From Phorcus lineatus (Eukaryota; Mollusca; Gastropoda; Trochida; Trochidae), in assembly GCA_921293015.1 (NCBI GenBank), contig OV121097.1:28865429-28929428 (forward strand): DNA of 64,000 nucleotides. Reading direction: 5' to 3'. The position numbers were made by a program, and so were the translations under genes. Below, one piece after another: positions 6,501 to 62,836 of the stretch; the stretch's first letter is position 1; each line of letters begins with the position of its first letter. The notes beneath the pieces are model-generated. The model ran no database searches. It had not been told where the DNA came from and saw only the letters and a list, made by a program, of their open reading frames with translations.

Positions 6501-9500
6501 ATAGCAAGCCCGGCGGGTAGTGGGGGAAAATTGAGCGTTTGTAATGCATATTTTCGGTACGATAAACATGACCAATATCTATAAAACTTTCGGAAAATAT
6601 GCCCCCATTCTTTAGAACAACAACGGGGAAAAAATCGGCAGCTTAGCGAAAGCCGGAACGAATATACACGCGTTCAACCGACACGACTGCCGTGCAATTT
6701 TTTTCCGGGATCCGCTACATGGTACAATTGCGTTAATTAGTAAATGCGTCAGATTATAAGTCCGGCTTCCGGGGTTCGCTAAGGCTAACTGCGGCGTAGT
6801 TTAATTTCATCCCGGACCATTCCGTAAACCGCGGCTTGAGGGTTAAGAATACAATACACTAACACATTACACAAACATTGCACAAAAGATGTACACAAAC
6901 ACTGCAAAATCATTCACACAGACAGTACACAAAACAAGTACTCACTCATGTCTGATCTCCATCTCGGTCCACTCACAGTACACAGACGCAAGGTCATCAA
7001 CATGCTTGTACGGCACCTTCACAGCTTTCTCAAATATTACCCGAGCCTAGAATCAAAACGACAAACTTTTGTTATCAAATTATCATTTCAATAAGGTTGA
7101 AAACAAGCCAGTTTGAAAGCATAATTCTGTTTATTCAATAGCCAAAACAAATAAAACCTGTAGAACATGCCCGAGTGGAGAAGAGTTATGAAGTGTTGGG
7201 CTGGGTGCCGTATAGGCCCTATTATTACACTGCAGTAATTAGTAAACACCTTTCGGGCATTTCATACATATCACATATCATTCTAGTCTTGCATTGCAAA
7301 AAGTGGGAAATTTAAAAACATTTTTCATGTAATGTCCAACTACAGGATTATCAGTAAAATTATCCTTAGTATTCGACAATCATTAATGAATTCTTTTTTT
7401 CATGAATACTTACATCCTCAAGTTGGTTTGCATTCTCATAGAATTTAGCAAACTCCACCCAGAGAGTGTGTGGTTTGCCTGACGCTAGCCGAGGGTCGAC
7501 TGTCTGAACAGCCTCAGTGTATGTGTTGATAATCTGAAACAGATGAAGTGACGGTTTGCAACAATGGCAAAAGGTTTGCAATTATTTGGAAACACATGGT
7601 GCAAGCTCTGGTGCAACGCAACATCAATTGACTCAACTTATAACAAAAGAACAACTTTTTGAATTTTTTAGGGGGGATGAGCCCTATTCAAACTTCTGTC
7701 CTCACGTCGAGGCAAAAATCAAAAGTCCTGAGAGTCCAAGCAACTTTCTTGAGATCATAAATATATTTACGTACAGGATGATTAAGCAGCACAGCTTCCT
7801 TATCAAAACTTTGTAACTTTGCGGTATGAATAAAATGATGACTATGTCACAGCTGTTCACTATCTAAATGGCAAATATTTCTAGAACCCTCACTTAAAGC
7901 CAAGATTCAATCATACCTCTCTAGGTTTTCCTTCAAAGAGTTTGACTCTCTTGTGCCACTCATGTACATTGTGTGGGTTCTGTCTCAGCAGCACGCTGTA
8001 AGAAACCAGAGAATGTATCATTACCCATAGGGTTATATGGTTACACATAATCAGTGAAATCATATCATATTGGCACATGTGCAAATAATTTTTGACTTTC
8101 AAATTTTGACTTTTCATAAAATCTTGGTTGTGACTTTACTGAGTGTGATGAAAAAGGATATCTTTCCCCAAACTATCATCATATGATTAAAATGACATAA
8201 AATTTTGTAACAATAAAACTAAGACATGTCAAATAAGTGTATAAATGTGTCAAATAACCTTTACAAAAGACAAACTTTATAAATGATCCTTGTTCAAACA
8301 AACTTGAAATTATTTTGTAAAAGTCAACGACATACCTGCAATTTTGATTGTGTAAACATACATGAAACAACTATAAGTGCCCTCCATTACGCTTTCAAGC
8401 AACCAAGGCAATAAGCATCTCTAGGTGAGAACCAGATTGATTACTAAAATTTGAGCTCAGGAATATTGTTGAATATTGTATTTACTCAACTGGTGAACCA
8501 ATAGTTGAGGTCTTAAACACCTAAAAAACACAAATATGTCAGTTACTAAACAATTACCAAACAGATCATTTCAATGGGTCACCTGTTTAAAAGAAGAGGT
8601 CGTCGATCCATCAAACTTTCCAACCGAGCCAGTCTTAGTTCCAGATCAATATCATCTGGAAGAAAAGAGACAAAATGGGGTAAACAAACTATTATTTACC
8701 CCAAAGAAAAACTGTTCATGTTATTAATTTCCAAACTGGACCCTAGACACAAAGAAATATAAACCATGAATGAATTTCAAAGATAAATAATAAAAACATG
8801 AATATCAATTAGATGATATAAAATATTTCTTATTTCATAGGTGAGCTTCACAACATTCCTATGTAGTAAAGAGAGAGTATGAAAAACAGTTTGTCCTATG
8901 CTTACAGCAGATTTTATGAGTGCCTCACCTTAAGTTCTACCTTTCTCTTCCATGTTTGAAAAGATATGTGGCTAAGAATCATTTCAATTATTAGAGGTGC
9001 AATCAATCACCACATTCCTAACACAGCATATGATTTATCAACTATGAATTTATCAATAATGATTGACACTCAATTTTTCAAACATATGATTTTATGAGTG
9101 CTTCACCTTCGGTTCTCTTTGATATTAGAAAAGACATGTGGCTAAGAATCATTTCAATAATTAGTGGTGCAATCATTAACCACATTCCTAACACAGCATC
9201 ATGATTTATCAACTATGAATTTATCTATAATGATGAAGACTGTCAATTTTTCAAACGGATGATTTTATGAGTGCTTCACCTTCTTCAGTTGCTCCCGTTT
9301 CTTCCATGGTCTCCATCTTGGCTGCAATCATGCTCTTCTCAAACTTGGCATATTCATCAAACACCTGGGTGAAGTCTCGTACTGTAATCACAGTCTGGAT
9401 TGCCTCCTCGTAAATATCCCTCGCCTGCAATAATATCAATGGGTTAGATAAACTACTCTAAAAAAATGCTCACTGATGCTCTTGCACATTGGTGCCATTA

Positions 9501-52691: not shown

Positions 52692-53091
52692 CGACTCACG
52701 AAGTGTTTCTTCATGGGAACAAACCTACAAATAATTTTTACATGATCAAGATTGTACGAAGTTAATGTAATATAATTCACATATCAGTTTATAAAAGTAG
52801 ATATTATTAAGTTATTTTTATGAGATATTATTAGTTCATGTATTTCAACATTTAAAACAATCAATTAAACCATGAACAAGATCCCTATCCAATTTATTCC
52901 TCCTTAATATATATCTGTGATGTCATCAATGACAGTAGAAACTAAAACAAGTAGCAACCATCAACATCAAGTACTTGCTCAGGTCTCGTCAAATCTCGTT
53001 TGGTTCTGAATAGGAATAGTGTCAACCTTTGTTCTCAATAGCACAACAAAAAGTTTTAAGTAATGTTATTGAGATTCAAATATACACTAAG

Positions 53092-53618
53092 TATGGAAGC
53101 GCATTACTGCCAGAAGTGAAAGACTTATACATAACTTCTAATTAAATGATAGTTTCATCTAATTAGACAAAGTTTCAATTTATTATTTGATAGTTACAGC
53201 TAATTACATGATAGTTTAATCTAATTATATGATAGCTATATCAAATAAGACATTAGTTTTATCTAATAGTACAACGTTTTTATCAAAAAGGATTTGTATT
53301 CAACATCTAATTCTATGATTCTTATATCTAATTAGATGATATTTTCATCTAATTAGATGTGAAATGTAATTATCTATTAGATAAAAATATTATGTAATTA
53401 GATGAAACTATCATATAATAAGATGGAAGTTTCTTATCATTGAATAAAACTTTCATATATTTGGAGGAAACATTTATCTAATTAGATGAAACTATCATCA
53501 AATTAGATTAAACTATCATTTAATTACACGAAACTATCATATAATTAGATGCAACTATAGTTGCATCTAATTAGAACTTCTGTAATTTTTTTCACTGCTG
53601 GCAGCAATGCGCTTCCAT
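53092..53618. mobile_element. Foldback transposon with arrayed arms (~527 bp)
   Basis: The terminal arms are inverted: TATGGAAGCGCATTACTGCC on the left and, on the opposite strand, TATGGAAGCGCATTGCTGCC on the right. Inside, a ~20-bp motif (TGATAGTTTCATCTAATTA) is repeated in the left half and appears as its complement (TAATTAGATGAAACTATCA) in the right half. The whole element therefore folds on itself. A TA dinucleotide at both outer ends could be the target duplication. It has no coding capacity. Confidence 0.75.
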
Positions 53619-54317
53619 AATTATGCCACACTGTAATACAAACATATAAGCAAAGGCCGACTTTCAGGTCGTATAATAAGCACACAATGTGAGAACAGTG
53701 TAAAGCAAATATCAACATGATAAAGGAGGTGAACAACATTCTTCATCAGTCACGAAAGAATACCTTCAGGATACACAAGCGTATACGGATCCACAGATCT
53801 CCTACAATACCCTGGTACATATCACGCTAAGTGTCTCGTTACGCTGACGGCTTGCTTATTAATGACCATATTTAGCATGTATTTTTCAGTGAATTTCGTT
53901 ATGCCATGATCATTTTATCTAAATATGTAATGTTAATTTTTCATCGTTTATGTATAAAATATTCTTAAAAATAAAATACTGAAGATGGGCCATTGGTAAC
54001 GCGTCATGCGTGGCAACAACATGTATAATATTCTGGTGATCACATTGCTGTGAAACCGGTTGGATTGAAACCGATATGCAAAGATTCATCTTCAGACTTT
54101 TATTTTTCAGAATATATATTGAAAAATATGAAATTATCCGTTGCATGTATGGCCTGAAAAGGCTGGTTGAGCTGAAAGCGCTAGCCATTAAAATGGCATG
54201 TTTTTTACTTCTAACTTCATATTTTTCAATATCTAATACCTGTGAGCTGAACATTAATCTCCAGATTGTGAACTTTATTCATATATATATATATTGTTTT
54301 TTATCAACGCTTTAAAT

Positions 54318-56342: not shown

Positions 56343-59300
56343 CTATTTTGGTACATCAGTTTTGGAAATAGAACAAGTACAATTTGGCTGCTTGCAACAA
56401 ACGTCATTGCCAAGCAACCGATCATCATGCTCCACTGGTTTGGCCGCGGCACCGGATATGGCCGGGGAGGATGAGTGCTCACTGCTCTCCGATAGACGCT
56501 TCTGCGCATGACTATTCGTAGAACTGCCATATCCACTGCTAGATGTTTGGTCAGTCCCATGGCTGTTCACGCCCGCCAATCTGCTCTTGGTGTCTTGCAA
56601 AATGGACACATGGGTTGCAAGTTTTGCACGAAAGTTTAGAGAAGTGTTAACTAGTCTCTCCAGCACTTGCTCTGGTCGTTGTGAACTTTCTGTTGTGGCA
56701 GGGTTGTCGTGTTGCATCTCCTCCAATGTCGGGAATCTGTGACTTGGAGGGTATTTCAAATTCGGATCAAATGGGCAACGTTCCTGTTGTACTGGTTGAC
56801 TGTCGACTGTCCAGGCGTCCTCCACAGTTTTCTGTTTACGCATGTAGGTTTGACTTTCACTTCGCAAGTCCGGCCTTCCGTTCAGCAAGTCAACATTTAT
56901 GCCTAATGAATTCTGAGTGCTCATTGGTATATTCTGTTCCTTGTCATTGGAATTGCTTCCTGTTGTGAGTTGACCACTGATTGGAGGGGTCGTATTGTTT
57001 TGTATTTGATCACATGGAATATCAGGAGTAAAAGCAGTAGGATTCAACATTTGAGGTATTTCTACAGGATGAATTCTTTGGTAGTTGGACTGTGTGGCGG
57101 TAATATTAGCTGGTCCAACCTGATGCGGCGCAGCTGGAATATTAACTACCGTCTTCAAATGTGTCTGGAATCCAGCCAATGGTTTAACATTGCGTTCTCC
57201 ATTGATATAGTTTCCTCTTGGAATTTCTTGGAAAATGTTATTCCGGGGAACATCCTGGGAGCAACAATTTCGAGAAATTTCTGTGAAACGGTGTTCACCA
57301 TGGGTTCCTGGAATGCAAAATGTTTCGTTTGTTGCTTGGAAACTAGCATTTTGGGGTAATTGCTGAATATAGCACTCTCGAGGAATTTCATGCACGCCAT
57401 ACGTAGGACTCTCAATTGAGTATGCTGCTATTGGCTGATTGTCAACGTAATAAGAAGGTGGATCTGATGTCTCCTGTGTTGGAGAGAGTGGTGGACTATT
57501 GGAAGCTCTTGAAGCTTCTCGCAAAATTTGTGTAGCAGTTGAAAGAGCGTCAGAGTGGAGAAGAGTCTCCGCACTTGCCAAGTCCGAACAGACTGAGGTC
57601 GTCATCGAATGGAAGACTTCAACCATGTCCTCTCCATTGGCTTTTAAATCATTGCATATGTAGCAGAAACCACACAATTTATCCAAGACATCTTTCAACA
57701 GCTCCCCAGACACAACCGTCTCATCCAGTTCCGATCTCACTCTATACAGAGCCTGCTTATGCCGCCAGTACCAGGCATTCTTCTCATGAGAACTTGACGG
57801 TCTGTGGATTTCAAGAAGCCTCGACACCTCAGCAACAGCTCTGTCAAGATAAGGAGAACACATTTTCTTCCAGGAGAGAAAGGTCATGAGGAGGTGCTGC
57901 AAGATGAGCAAAATGTGATTGCCAGTTGGGAAAAGTTCCAGGTACTTCTTCTCGAATTTCAGGGCTTCCAAGAGAAATCTTTCGGCCTCATCGTATTGCT
58001 TCAAGCCCGATGCAAAATGGGCAGCCATGAGGTGAACCTCCACGATGATGAAATGTGAGGAGGTGCACCTCTTGAAGATATCCAGTGCATAGGTCATCTC
58101 AGAGAGGGCACTCTTATGATCACGTCTGAAATAGGAAGGTTCGCTTCATAAGTAAAGGGATTAGCAGGTATCGACCTATACTGATAAAAAAAATTGAAAG
58201 ATATATCTTTGAACTCCCAATGTCGATCACAAGTATTGCAGAAACAGGCCAGTAGGAGTAATTCCCACTTGGTTACAAAAGTTACAAAAGAAGATAATCA
58301 TTTGAGAGAATGTGTCAAAGTCAAGAATGCAGCTTTGTCTTAATACATTGTGCATTTATAAAATGATGAAAAAACGAAAAACTTAATTGTTTTAAAAGTT
58401 CTTATGTTCTGAAGGTCATATGTGTAAATAGTAAAGATTTTAAGGTCAACTTAATACTAACTTTCTGCCATACACTTGTCCCATGTTCCAGTAGGTAAGA
58501 GCAGTGTGATAGTTGATTCTCTCTATCTTCATCCTAATCTCTTTTGCCTCGGACAGAAGCTGAAGGGCGTAGTCTGATAGAAGTTGAAGAAGGATATAAT
58601 AGTGGTTTCAATATTGGATCGTTATCGATGTCTCTGGTGTTTTGACCGTGTATTACCGTCTTCGGCAAACTTATCTTTGACATTGGCTAATTTAGAACGG
58701 TCATTTACTAAAGGGGAGGAGGGGGCGAGGTTTCAGAAAAAAATATACAGCCACCAGGGTAGGGTCATGGAAAAAAATACGAAAGGTTGGGGAGCTTCAT
58801 TTAACAATAGACAGTTATAAAACTATCTTTCTTTAGAACGTGAAAGAACGGCTGAAACATAAAGCTTTTTAAATTAATAAAAGGTTCGTAATTTGAGTTA
58901 AACTGGTTTATAATCTTAAAAAACTGTTGCTCATATGAAAAATTACCATACCTCATTCATTGTTAATTATAGAACTGAAAGTAAAAAAAATCTGCTGGAC
59001 TGACAGTTCATACAAGAAGTTAATATTTGAAAGGCGTTATATATATTTATTCAACATAGATATATTTTTGCCACTAAGAGACTAATACTGTTAACATAAG
59101 GTGAAAAAATTCTCTAGAGTGTCAATGAATTTTTTAAAATGTAAAACCGAACATCAATCTTCAAAAGATCAATTTCAAGAAGTTCCGAAGATTTATTTTA
59201 GTGGAGGCTCAAGAAAAAAATACACTTCAATGGTAATAGCCGTGAACAAAATTACGTGTAGTTGGGGAGGGCTAAATTTTTAATATACAAACCGAAGAGG

Positions 59301-62300
59301 AAAAAAACCCGACCCCCACTCTCGTGAAATAGATGACAAGTCCCTTATATTACTATGCTTTGATCGATCACATTAAAAGTAACACACAGAAATTATTAAG
59401 ATTTAAACTACGGATTTGAAAAAGAATTTAAGATTTGTGGTCTTAAGAGAAAGACAAGAAAAAAAACCAAAGCCGCCATAATTACATTCAATGATTCAGG
59501 CTTTGAAAGTAGTCACACAATGACTGAAGCCAACTTACCGTGGTTACCACGTTTAGAGTGTTGCATAGCAACGTTGTTGAGGACTACCACCAGGTCTCCT
59601 GGAGCAACATCAGCGTACTTCCGGCGCTCTGTCAGAGAGTTGGTGTAGTAGCGGAGTGCCTCGTCATCACTTTTTCCACCTGTTAGAGACAAAGTCAATA
59701 ACTGATGATGCAAAACATTATGATGGTTTGATTGTTGCAATACCTAAATATCCATATGGGAGACAATTTGAATGACAATTTGAATGACCTCGCTCGAACA
59801 CGAGTCCGAGACTGTTGATTGTGTTGATCATGATGGGTATGGCGGGGTGGTAGTGATATATTGAATGATATATACTGACCTCTCTCGTATATTAGTCCGA
59901 GGCTGTTGATCATGATGGGTATGTCGAAGTGGAAGGGATATATTGAATGATATATGCTGACCTCTCTCGTATATGAGTCCGAGACTGTTGATCATGATGG
60001 GTATGGCGGGGTGGTAGGGATATATTGAATGATGTATACTGACCTCGCTCGTATAAGAGTCCGAGGCTGTTGATCATGATGGGTATGACAGGGTTGTAGG
60101 GATATATTGAATGGTATATACTGACCTCGCTCGTATATGAGTCCGAGGCTGTTGATCATGATGGGTATGGCGGGATGGTAGGTATATATTGAATGATATA
60201 TACTGACCTCGCTCGAATATGAGTCCGAGGCTGTTGATCATGATGGGTATGGCGGGATGGTAGTGATATATTGAATGATATATACTGACCTCTCTCGTAT
60301 ATTAGTCCGAGGCTGTTGATCATGATTGGTATGCCAGGGTTGTAGGGATATATTGAATGATATATACTGACCTCGCTCGTATATGAGTCCGAGGCTGTTG
60401 ATCATGATGGGTATGGCGGGGTGGTAGGGATATATTGAATGATATATACTGACCTCGCTCGTATATGAGTCCGAGGCTGTTGATCATGATGGGTATGCCA
60501 GGGTTGTAGGGATGTATTGAATGATATATACTGACCTCTCTCGTATATGAGTCCGAGGCTGTTGATCATGATGGGTATGGCGGGGTGGTAGTGATATATT
60601 GAATGATATATACTGACCTCGCTCGTAAATGAGTCCGAGACTGTTGATCATGATGGGTATGGCGGGATGGTAGTGATATATTGAATGATATATACTGACC
60701 TCGCTCGTATATGAGTCCGAGACTGTTGATCATGATGGGTATGCCAGGGTTGTAGGGATATATTGAATGATATATACTGACCTCTCTCGTATATGAGTCC
60801 GAGGCTGTTGATCATGATGGGTATGGCGGGGTGGTAGGGCGCCACCTTCCTCGTCTCCTCCAGTGTCTCCTTCAACAGATCCTCGGCCTGGTCGAAATAC
60901 TCTGCAGTGATAGCATTACCTTTTTTAGGTCATACAAACATGAAATAACAAAAGAGTGAACCATATTCCATGTCATATATTTCACATGAGCCCATGTTGG
61001 GTATCAATATTGCTAGCAACCTTTGTGCAAAATCTTCAGCCTGGTAGAAGTAAGCTGCAGTGACAATATATATCGATAAGATCATTCAAACAGTGGTTAC
61101 CCGTAATGTGAATCATAAACCGTGTAACATCTTCATATGAGCAAATGTTGCAAACAGGTTTCCTGGGAACCTTTGTGTCAGATCCATGGCCTGGTAGAAT
61201 AATTCTGCAGTGACAACATAACCTTATTAAGGTTATTGTGACGGAAGGCACATTTGAACCATCAGAATCACATACCATCGCCAATTACAAACATCACTGG
61301 CAGTTAATAACAAATGTATCTTAGTTGTTCTTGGTAAGTTGGCGTTTCTTAATAAAAGACTGATGGTGGATGGAATAGATGGTAACAGTATGGAAATTAG
61401 TGGCATGCATATGACAAAATTATATTGATTATGATGCATGTGTCGTTTCGGCGGTAGCATAGAAGTTAGTGGCATGCATATGACAAAGTCATTGTGAATA
61501 TAAAATAGTCGTGGATGGATCAAGAGTATTTGTTCACCGCAACGTATTCCCCTAGTATAAAGGATGACATAACATGGTAGCCAGACACCTACCGAGGAAT
61601 ATCATAGGAATGGCCAGGTAACACCGGATGTTGATGACCCTGTTGGTGAGCTTCCTGCCGTCGGTACACCGCCCCGACTCCTCTAGGGCTTCCTGAAAGA
61701 ACCTGGCAACAAACAAGGGTGAACAACGGTGGGGACCTGGAGATGGTTGCCATATTACCATAACACAAATCAGGCGTTACTTCCTAGTATTTCCTTACAT
61801 ACTAGGAAACAGCATGTTTGTCATTTTACAAATATTGTTTTACGGGAACTAGAATTGTGGTTTGTAAATTCTTAGGGAATGTATTAATTAGAAGGGTATA
61901 CTATGTTCTGCTATGTAAAAGGGATACATTTAAAGACAATGATAAATAGAATGGCACTTTCCGTAAGTATTCTTTAGTACAGGTCTCTGGATTGAAAACC
62001 ATTTTCAAACAAACGTTGGTCTACTGCTAACAAAATACGTTTTCTCATCATTGATATCAAGAACACCTTCCTTGTTTGTTATTAACCCGTCCATGCCTTA
62101 AATCTGGCTAAAAACGTATTTGTTACTAGTTTCTTTGGGGTGAAATGGTTGATAGTCATTCCATACCAAAACAATAATGCATACCTTCTAGATTTGGCGT
62201 TCTTCCCCTGTCTGTTGTAGTTGAGGCCCATATCAGCGAGAAGAGAAACCAACATCTCTCGATTCTCGGTTTCTTTCAGGACCGGAAGTGCGTCACGGAA

Positions 62301-62836
62301 GAGTCCCATTGCTTCCTTTAGGTCTTGTCCTAGTGGAAATATACATAGATTACATTATGATATGGAATTATTAACATTGAATATATTGAAGTTATAACGT
62401 AGGATATTTTACGTCTATAAAAGCAAAATATAGAATTATGGAAAATATAAAAGAATAATATAGAATTATTAAACAATTATGACATGAATGCAAATCAGTT
62501 TCTAATCACGCTTTATTTTCACTTAATAACACAGGAGAAGTGCCCCAAAACGTTTGGGACAAAGAAAAAAGTTGATATTCTAGAAATAAGTATTATGCAT
62601 TATTATTAGTATTATTATTGACTAAAATTTAGTACTATGAACAGGTAAGTGGGTTTAGATCGTCATCAAAACTCGTTACCTTTCCCGATGGTTTTGGCCA
62701 TGCCCAGGAGCCACTTCTGTATGGCACATTCCTCTCGTGTACCAAATTTTGTAGACGCCATCATCATGGCCTCGTAGAACTTGACGGCCTCGCCAGGGAA
62801 ACATTTCACAAGCAGGTTCTCGGCTGACACTGACAC
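56343..62836 (-). CDS. Tetratricopeptide-repeat protein, KLC/nephrocystin-3-like TPRs with disordered C-terminus (5' end outside window)
   Basis: Seven terminal exons join in phase (2568 nt, 855 aa plus stop): 62836-62680, 62329-62185, 61702-61593, 60901-60782, 59679-59539, 58573-58462, 58125-56343. The first ~370 visible residues are helical TPR units of the ~42-residue kind seen in kinesin light chains, nephrocystin-3 and NB-ARC/TPR proteins; examples are AIPIMINSLGLIYERGG, VVVLNNVAMQHSKRGNH, ALTYWNMGQVYGRK and FASGLKQYDEAERFLLEAL. TPRs normally bind other proteins. From residue ~470 to the end the chain is Ser/Pro/Asn/Gln-rich and looks disordered, with three degenerate ~19-residue repeats. 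The final stretch is cysteine-rich (DVCCKQPNCTC). The large last exon (1783 bp) encodes the last TPRs and the whole tail. No exon could be supported between 62837 and 64000, so any N-terminal domain (for instance a nucleotide-binding module) is outside the window. I cannot assign a specific function. The 60901-60782 exon is flanked by tandem copies of its own splice sites. Confidence 0.85.
59786..60860 (-). repeat. 82-bp tandem array made of an exon end plus its 5' splice site (13 copies)
   Basis: The unit on the minus strand is the 3' part of the TPR exon ending at 60782 (CCCATCATGATCAACAGCCT, then CGGACTC, ending GAGAG), the donor GTCAGT, and ~20 bp of intron (ATATATCATTCAATATAT). GACCT start points lie at 59877, 59959, 60041, 60123, 60205, 60287, 60369, 60451, 60533, 60615, 60697 and 60779, exactly 82 bp apart. 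A further, 91-bp copy starts at 59786. Only the copy at 60779 is continuous with the real exon. Almost every copy keeps AG|GTCAGT. Confidence 0.93.
60902..61260 (-). repeat. Decayed upstream duplicates of the TPR exon acceptor
   Basis: The acceptor CACTGCAG of the exon starting at 60901 recurs near 61055-61060 and 61205-61210, about 153 and 150 bp apart. In each case it is followed by exon-like sequence, TTCTACCAGGC plus GA/CATGGATCTG. Neither copy has a matching downstream donor and both run into stop codons, so they look like pseudo-exons. Confidence 0.7.

What the first reader, a model, noticed from the sequence alone, without database searches (positions are those of the whole stretch)
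59786..60860. Tandem array of 12 decoy 5' splice sites copied from the adjacent exon
An 82-bp unit that straddles an exon-intron junction of the TPR gene has been amplified to 13 copies, almost all keeping AG|GTCAGT. The intron after the exon ending at 60782 thus carries 12 competing donors, each with exon-like sequence upstream. Because 82 is not a multiple of 3, using the next copy would shift frame, and reading on from the exon ends at a stop at 60648. Either donor choice is strictly first-come, or the array produces length-variable, mostly non-productive transcripts. Copy number should vary between individuals.
Basis: partly seen in the sequence, partly recalled or inferred. Interest (0 to 1): 0.75.

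Follow-up and report, generated by a model that had tools for sequence, protein, structure and literature searches.

The report
Repeated splice donors after an exon
In one animal gene a short piece spanning the end of an exon and the start of the next intron has been copied head to tail about twelve times, giving the splicing machinery a row of look-alike cut sites; it looks more like a neutral DNA stutter than a designed switch, but it is a neat natural test of how cells pick the right one.

Summary
On the minus strand an 82-bp unit (58 nt of exon end plus 24 nt of intron start) forms 12 in-register copies plus a decayed thirteenth (59783-60839); 11 of 13 carry exactly GAG|GTCAGT. The gene encodes a TPR protein. 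Among the 13 donors only the first (exon end 60782) keeps the frame; the 12 others give stops 240-1112 nt before the last junction. No RNA could be examined, so donor choice is unknown. Donor columns are not more conserved than the rest of the unit (P=0.30). An inverted paralogue 292 kb away has two copies and a fragment, its one decoy donor altered; two distant paralogues have the intron but no array. Four stretches outside the converted exons show dN/dS 0.10-0.25. Best reading: a young, neutral minisatellite at an exon-intron junction, homogenised by exchange between copies; donor 1 must work often enough to make protein, with some unproductive leakage. Precedent: human IFI6, whose repeat units serve as splice donors.

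The parts
60782..60901 (-). Exon 5 of the TPR gene (120 nt, phase 1-1); its last 58 nt (60839-60782) are copy 1 of the array
   Evidence: Boundaries read from sequence; joining six exons gives a frame open for 802 codons; TPR_12 hit on the joined protein
59822..60839 (-). 82-bp tandem array: 12 in-register copies (60839-59856), each 58 nt exon-like + 24 nt intron-like, then part of copy 13
   Evidence: Tandem Repeats Finder; alignment of units; the 58/24 split is read
60780..60781 (-). Donor 1 (GAG|GTCAGT), the only one of the 13 that keeps the reading frame
59878..60699 (-). Decoy donors 2-12 at 60699, 60617, 60535, 60453, 60371, 60289, 60207, 60125, 60043, 59961 (GTCAGC), 59879
59783..59855 (-). 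Degenerate 13th copy, 9 nt longer in its exon-like part, donor GAG|GTCATT at 59788
59680..60781 (-). Intron 5 if donor 1 is used (1102 nt); holds the array; its acceptor lies outside the array
60648..60650 (-). TGA met when exon 5 is read on into the array; truncates products of donors 3-13 (donor 2 gives a stop in exon 6)
59539..59679 (-). Exon 6 (141 nt); the local alignment with the paralogue covers 137 nt, all identical
61029..61062 (-). Decayed copy of the acceptor half of exon 5, 8 of 34 mismatches
61179..61212 (-). Second decayed copy of the acceptor half, 6 of 34 mismatches
61593..61702 (-). Exon 5a, TPR coding
62185..62329 (-). Exon 4, TPR coding
58462..58573 (-). Exon 7, TPR coding
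56343..58125 (-). Exon 8, taken as the last coding exon

Best explanation
A minisatellite born from the 3' end of a TPR exon and the first 24 nt of its intron, enlarged and homogenised by slippage, unequal exchange or conversion between copies, and essentially neutral. Shown: the array, the equal donor sequences, the premature stops behind every decoy, low dN/dS in the gene pair, and absence of the array at the same junction of two distant paralogues. Inferred: donor 1 is used in enough transcripts to make the protein (helped by exon definition, 120-nt exon), some transcripts leak to the next one or few donors, and these are removed by nonsense-mediated decay. Also inferred: copy number changes easily.
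For: Only donor 1 of 13 keeps the frame; 12 of 12 others give stops 240-1112 nt upstream of the last junction. dN/dS 0.10 (exon 4), 0.15 (exon 7), 0.25 (first 720 nt of exon 8), 0.18 (NTPase exon). Donor 9-mer: 1 variable column of 9 against 20 of 82 in the unit, P=0.30; 38 of 82 nine-column windows have at most one variable column. 16 of 28 pairs of informative columns show all four combinations, as exchange between copies would give. Two distant paralogues have the intron position and a donor (GAG|GTAATC) but no array there.
Against: No RNA evidence that donor 1 is used. Decoys 2-10 and 12 have the same 9-mer and the same computed U1 pairing as donor 1 (-6.3 kcal/mol); from recall, equal competing donors in test systems often favour the one nearest the acceptor, the opposite of what the protein needs. 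In IFI6 two downstream repeat units are used (one sentence in PMC4526556). dN/dS pools both branches and is 0.45 in exon 5a (3 replacement, 2 silent changes). The neutrality test has little power with 20 variable columns.
Confidence: 0.68

Rival explanations
1. The array acts as a dose-setting attenuator: decoy donors divert a share of transcripts into decay, so array length tunes the protein level.
For: All 12 decoys are unproductive and 10 of 12 equal the true donor in sequence. By a recalled weight matrix, minus-strand sites at least this good number 57 in the window, 11 of them in about 1 kb of array.
Against: No extra constraint on donor columns (P=0.30); no array at this junction in two distant paralogues; the close paralogue's decoy donor has lost the -1 G. 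By U1 pairing energy alone such sites are common: 140 on the minus and 126 on the plus strand of the window.
Confidence: 0.12
2. The decoys win: most transcripts are mis-spliced and this gene copy is being silenced, with the paralogue carrying on the function.
For: Equal donors, the downstream ones nearer the acceptor; a paralogue with one altered decoy exists.
Against: The window gene's frame is open over the six joined exons, 802 codons, and dN/dS is 0.10-0.25 in four stretches; but that pools both branches and would not show a recent loss.
Confidence: 0.12
3. Each AG|GT works as both acceptor and donor, so the intron is removed in 82-nt steps (ratchet splicing), or internal acceptors (CAACAG) make 23-nt microexons.
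For: AG|GT recurs every 82 nt, and a CAACAG lies in the exon-like part of the in-register units.
Against: The bases before the AG are no pyrimidine tract and GAG is a poor acceptor (recalled); 23-nt pieces would shift frame. Acceptor strength was not computed.
Confidence: 0.03
4. Assembly artefact: copy number inflated or copies misplaced.
For: Arrays are hard to assemble; raw reads are not available here.
Against: All 12 in-register copies differ from one another, no period among them is significant in the two offsets tested (offset 3 P=0.07, offset 1 P=0.85), and the paralogue holds two copies and a fragment.
Confidence: 0.05

Closest known systems
Human IFI6 (G1P3, 6-16) minisatellite with multiple splice donors (Turri, Cuin and Porter 1995, NAR 23:1854)
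   Same: Repeat units supply successive splice donors; PMC4526556 says two downstream repeat units are used as donors, enabling three mRNA species (one sentence seen). The 1995 paper is not held; only its title in reference lists was seen.
   Different: From recall, the IFI6 unit is 12 bp, so donor shifts keep frame. Here the unit is 82 bp, out of frame, 12 of 12 alternatives hit stops, and each unit brings 58 nt of exon along.
Internal tandem repeats in human segmental duplications (PMC2812944)
   Same: Variable tandem repeats, some at exon-intron boundaries, in recently duplicated paralogues (passages seen).
   Different: There, boundary repeats can form novel introns; here the repeat lies inside an older intron and adds no productive exon in the model.
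Intron gain by tandem genomic duplication at AGGT (PMC4974935, PMC3443670; listing and starts of abstracts only)
   Same: Tandem duplication of a segment holding AG|GT (the AGGT model itself is recalled).
   Different: This intron predates the array (same donor position in two distant paralogues) and its acceptor lies outside the array.

Membership tests
Minisatellite supplying multiple splice donors (IFI6 type) | Tandem repeat straddles a coding exon-intron boundary | tested here: met
Minisatellite supplying multiple splice donors (IFI6 type) | Units each carry a donor-like site | tested here: met
   13 of 13 read GAG|GTCA; 11 of 13 exactly GAG|GTCAGT
Minisatellite supplying multiple splice donors (IFI6 type) | Downstream units used as donors in mRNA | not testable with these tools
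   No RNA data
Minisatellite supplying multiple splice donors (IFI6 type) | Copy number variable | tested here: inconclusive
   13 copies versus 2 plus a fragment between paralogues, where the paralogue's array may have been cut short; no second individual
Conserved poison (decay-coupled) splicing element | Alternative use gives a premature stop upstream of the last junction | tested here: met
   12 of 12 decoys
Conserved poison (decay-coupled) splicing element | Element conserved beyond neutral expectation | tested here: not met
   Donor columns P=0.30, low power; no array at the junction in two distant paralogues
Intron gained by tandem duplication of AGGT | Intron absent before the duplication | tested here: not met
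   Donor at the same place and phase in two distant paralogues without array; the exon-6 homologues further on were recognised by eye in the translations

The most novel reading that the evidence does not exclude
Array length is a genetic dial: the number of equal, frame-killing donors sets what fraction of transcripts is productive and differs between individuals; together with the older acceptor-half copies upstream, this makes the exon a two-sided decoy site in a TPR protein gene.
Probability: 0.08. Interest if true: 0.75.

Novelty: new member of a known kind. Interest (0 to 1): 0.33.

Why it matters
Thirteen evenly spaced donors, 11 of them the same 9-mer and each preceded by a near-copy of the same 58 nt of exon, are a natural version of the duplicated-donor constructs used to ask how the spliceosome chooses among equal 5' splice sites. 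If donor 1 is nearly always used, local sequence can hardly be the reason, so exon definition or position must be; if not, array length would be a heritable dial on protein output. As evidence of function the array itself is weak.

Tried and rejected
Selection on decoy donors: not found, P=0.30. Higher-order periodicity: offset-3 copies are a little closer, permutation P=0.07; offset 5 has a lower mean still but was not tested; nothing claimed. Codon-like constraint in the copies: the 14 variable columns of the 54 exonic ones examined fall 4, 4 and 6 on codon positions 1, 2 and 3; nothing to claim. RNA folding of the first copies: z=-1.95, 10 of 200 shuffles as good, not followed. Intron gain by AGGT duplication: rejected. 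Antisense or read-through ORF: no stop-to-stop frame of 120 aa or more overlaps the array. Genome-wide pattern count of the unit: not completed; only the DNA search stands, whose 6 matches are 5 in the array and 1 in the paralogue (its first look is not exhaustive). Species: not identified.

The donor weight matrix was recalled, human-like, and serves only for a rough density; the exon-3 row of that table was placed one base off and is not used. The second protein given to joined two exons at a guessed junction and left out one stop near its start; its AAA_16 hit is weak (E 0.003, under the curated cut-off), so 'NTPase-like' rests on little. One search found no hits because the file name was wrong and was redone; one search had misplaced exon ends and was redone.

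Full report
What is there. On the minus strand the end of a TPR-coding exon and the start of its intron are repeated head to tail. Tandem Repeats Finder gives 59822-60839, period 82, 12.4 copies, 92% matches, no indels. Donor positions are 60781 minus multiples of 82 down to 59879, then a decayed copy with a donor at 59788. Each unit is 58 nt of exon and 24 nt of intron, read from the sequence. All 12 in-register copies are distinct, mean difference 5.74 of 82, with 20 of 82 columns variable.

The gene. Joining 62329-62185, 61702-61593, 60901-60782, 59679-59539, 58573-58462 and 58125-56343 gives a frame open for 802 codons; a 318-residue part hits TPR_12 at 2.2e-21. These are predicted exons; exons further upstream were not modelled. 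A part upstream matches AAA_16 weakly (E 0.003, below the curated cut-off, on a sequence with a guessed junction). Exon 5 is 120 nt, phase 1-1; leaving it out also keeps the frame open, 762 codons.

What the decoys would do. Donor 2 shifts frame and meets a stop in exon 6; donors 3-13 meet the TGA at 60650-60648. The stops lie 240 to 1112 nt before the last exon junction of the model, so by the usual rule (recalled) they are decay targets. Donors 1-10 and 12 share one 9-mer and one computed U1 pairing energy, -6.3 kcal/mol; copies 11 and 13 are weaker, -5.5 and -4.2. Other donors of the gene give -5.7 (exon 4), -8.7 (5a), -9.0 (6) and -1.6 (7). By a recalled weight matrix, sites at least as good as the array donor number 57 on the minus strand of the window, 11 of them in the array, and 37 on the plus strand; by U1 energy alone 140 and 126, so by that measure such sites are common. 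U1 genes of this genome begin with the expected 5' end in 3 of 3 loci read, out of 42 matches.

Is there selection on the decoys? Of the 9 donor columns 1 varies, against 20 of 82 overall: hypergeometric P=0.30. In 38 of 82 circular nine-column windows at most one column varies, and 23 of 82 nine-mers are kept in 11 or more of 12 copies. Donor conservation is thus what the low divergence of the copies would give; with few variable columns the test is weak. Of 28 pairs among 8 informative columns, 16 show all four combinations, consistent with exchange between copies or recurrent change.

The close paralogue. A DNA search of G000 (958 Mb, 74 contigs) gave 6 matches: 5 in the array and one at C39:28633522-28633734, opposite orientation, 292 kb away. 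Matches run in order through the two genes, window 66886 to 56357. In the paralogue the same exon is followed by one further copy, whose donor reads GAT|GTCAGT, and a third fragment that breaks off at CATCATGA. Exons 5a, 5 and 6 of the pair are 95.5, 96.7 and 100% identical (exon 6: 137 aligned of 141 nt), exons 4 and 7 82.6 and 89.3%. Introns, in matching columns of aligned columns: 192 of 325 upstream of exon 5, 35 of 112 upstream of exon 6, 68 of 109 after exon 6, 83 of 107 after exon 5a, 5 of 192 before 5a, the last and the exon-6 upstream stretch being essentially unalignable. dS is 0.08, 0.18 and 0.03 for exons 5a, 5 and 6, against 0.87, 0.40, 0.40 and 0.23 for exon 4, exon 7, the first 720 nt of exon 8 and the NTPase exon. 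This patchiness suggests gene conversion across exons 5a-6, so the array cannot be dated simply. Since the paralogue's array is followed by unrelated intron sequence, its ancestral copy number is open.

Distant paralogues. At C39:41.314 and 41.356 Mb (38 and 40% identity) the same exon ends in GAG|GTAATC. Tandem Repeats Finder shows no array at that junction in either (L015 has an unrelated 72-bp array further on; L030 gave no row), and there is no second copy of the donor half at up to 11 of 34 mismatches in the stretches held. The exon-6 homologues beyond were recognised by eye. The intron is therefore older than the array.

A second, older set. Upstream of exon 5 lie two decayed copies of its acceptor half, at 61212 and 61062 (6 and 8 of 34 mismatches). 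The paralogue has two as well (9 and 6). At up to 11 substitutions the minus strand of the 64-kb window holds only these and the exon itself. So both edges of this exon have been tandemly duplicated, apparently at different times. Whether these acceptors are used is unknown.

How it most likely works. The array is a neutral minisatellite and the protein is made from donor 1. dN/dS of 0.10-0.25 in four stretches outside the converted exons means the productive form has mattered over the pair's history, though exon 5a gives 0.45 on 5 changes. Leakage to the next donors is plausible; in IFI6 downstream repeat units are used (PMC4526556, one sentence seen). From recall, competition between equal donors often favours the acceptor-near one, so donor 1 would need help from exon definition; the papers on this were not held and only their titles were seen in a reference list. 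Nothing here measures donor use.

Known or new. Searches of the held papers (listings, of which 35, 39 and 54 were empty) led to the IFI6 minisatellite through citations and to human repeats at exon-intron boundaries (PMC2812944, passages); I saw no array like this one in those listings. The library lacks most subscription papers, so this is no proof of absence. I rate it a new member of a known kind, with a longer, out-of-frame unit.

Noticed in passing
window 61029-61062 and 61179-61212 (minus); L007 3190-3360: Two decayed copies of the acceptor half of exon 5 upstream of it, in both paralogues.
   Followed up: partly
window 59539-59679 and C39:28635946-28636086: Exon 6 identical over 137 aligned nt between paralogues whose other exons and introns are more diverged; looks like gene conversion.
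   Followed up: partly
G000 C25:1428091-1644881: 38 of 42 U1 snRNA matches lie on C25, many in runs at 725-bp spacing: a tandem U1 gene array (the match list is a lower bound).
   Followed up: no
window 53091-53622 and C39:28620559-28621244: 21-bp tandem repeats (TAATTAGATGAAACTATCATA-like) shared with a place near the paralogue.
   Followed up: no
L007 4825-5672: Overlapping tandem rows with units of 117 to 265 bp inside the paralogue's intron; a C-rich stretch just before and a G-rich one just after suggest a mobile element (by eye).
   Followed up: no
L015 2622-2983: 72-bp unit, five copies, near a distant TPR paralogue's exons, unrelated to the 82-bp array.
   Followed up: no
window 8943-9283: 170-bp unit in two tandem copies, 89% matches.
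   Followed up: no
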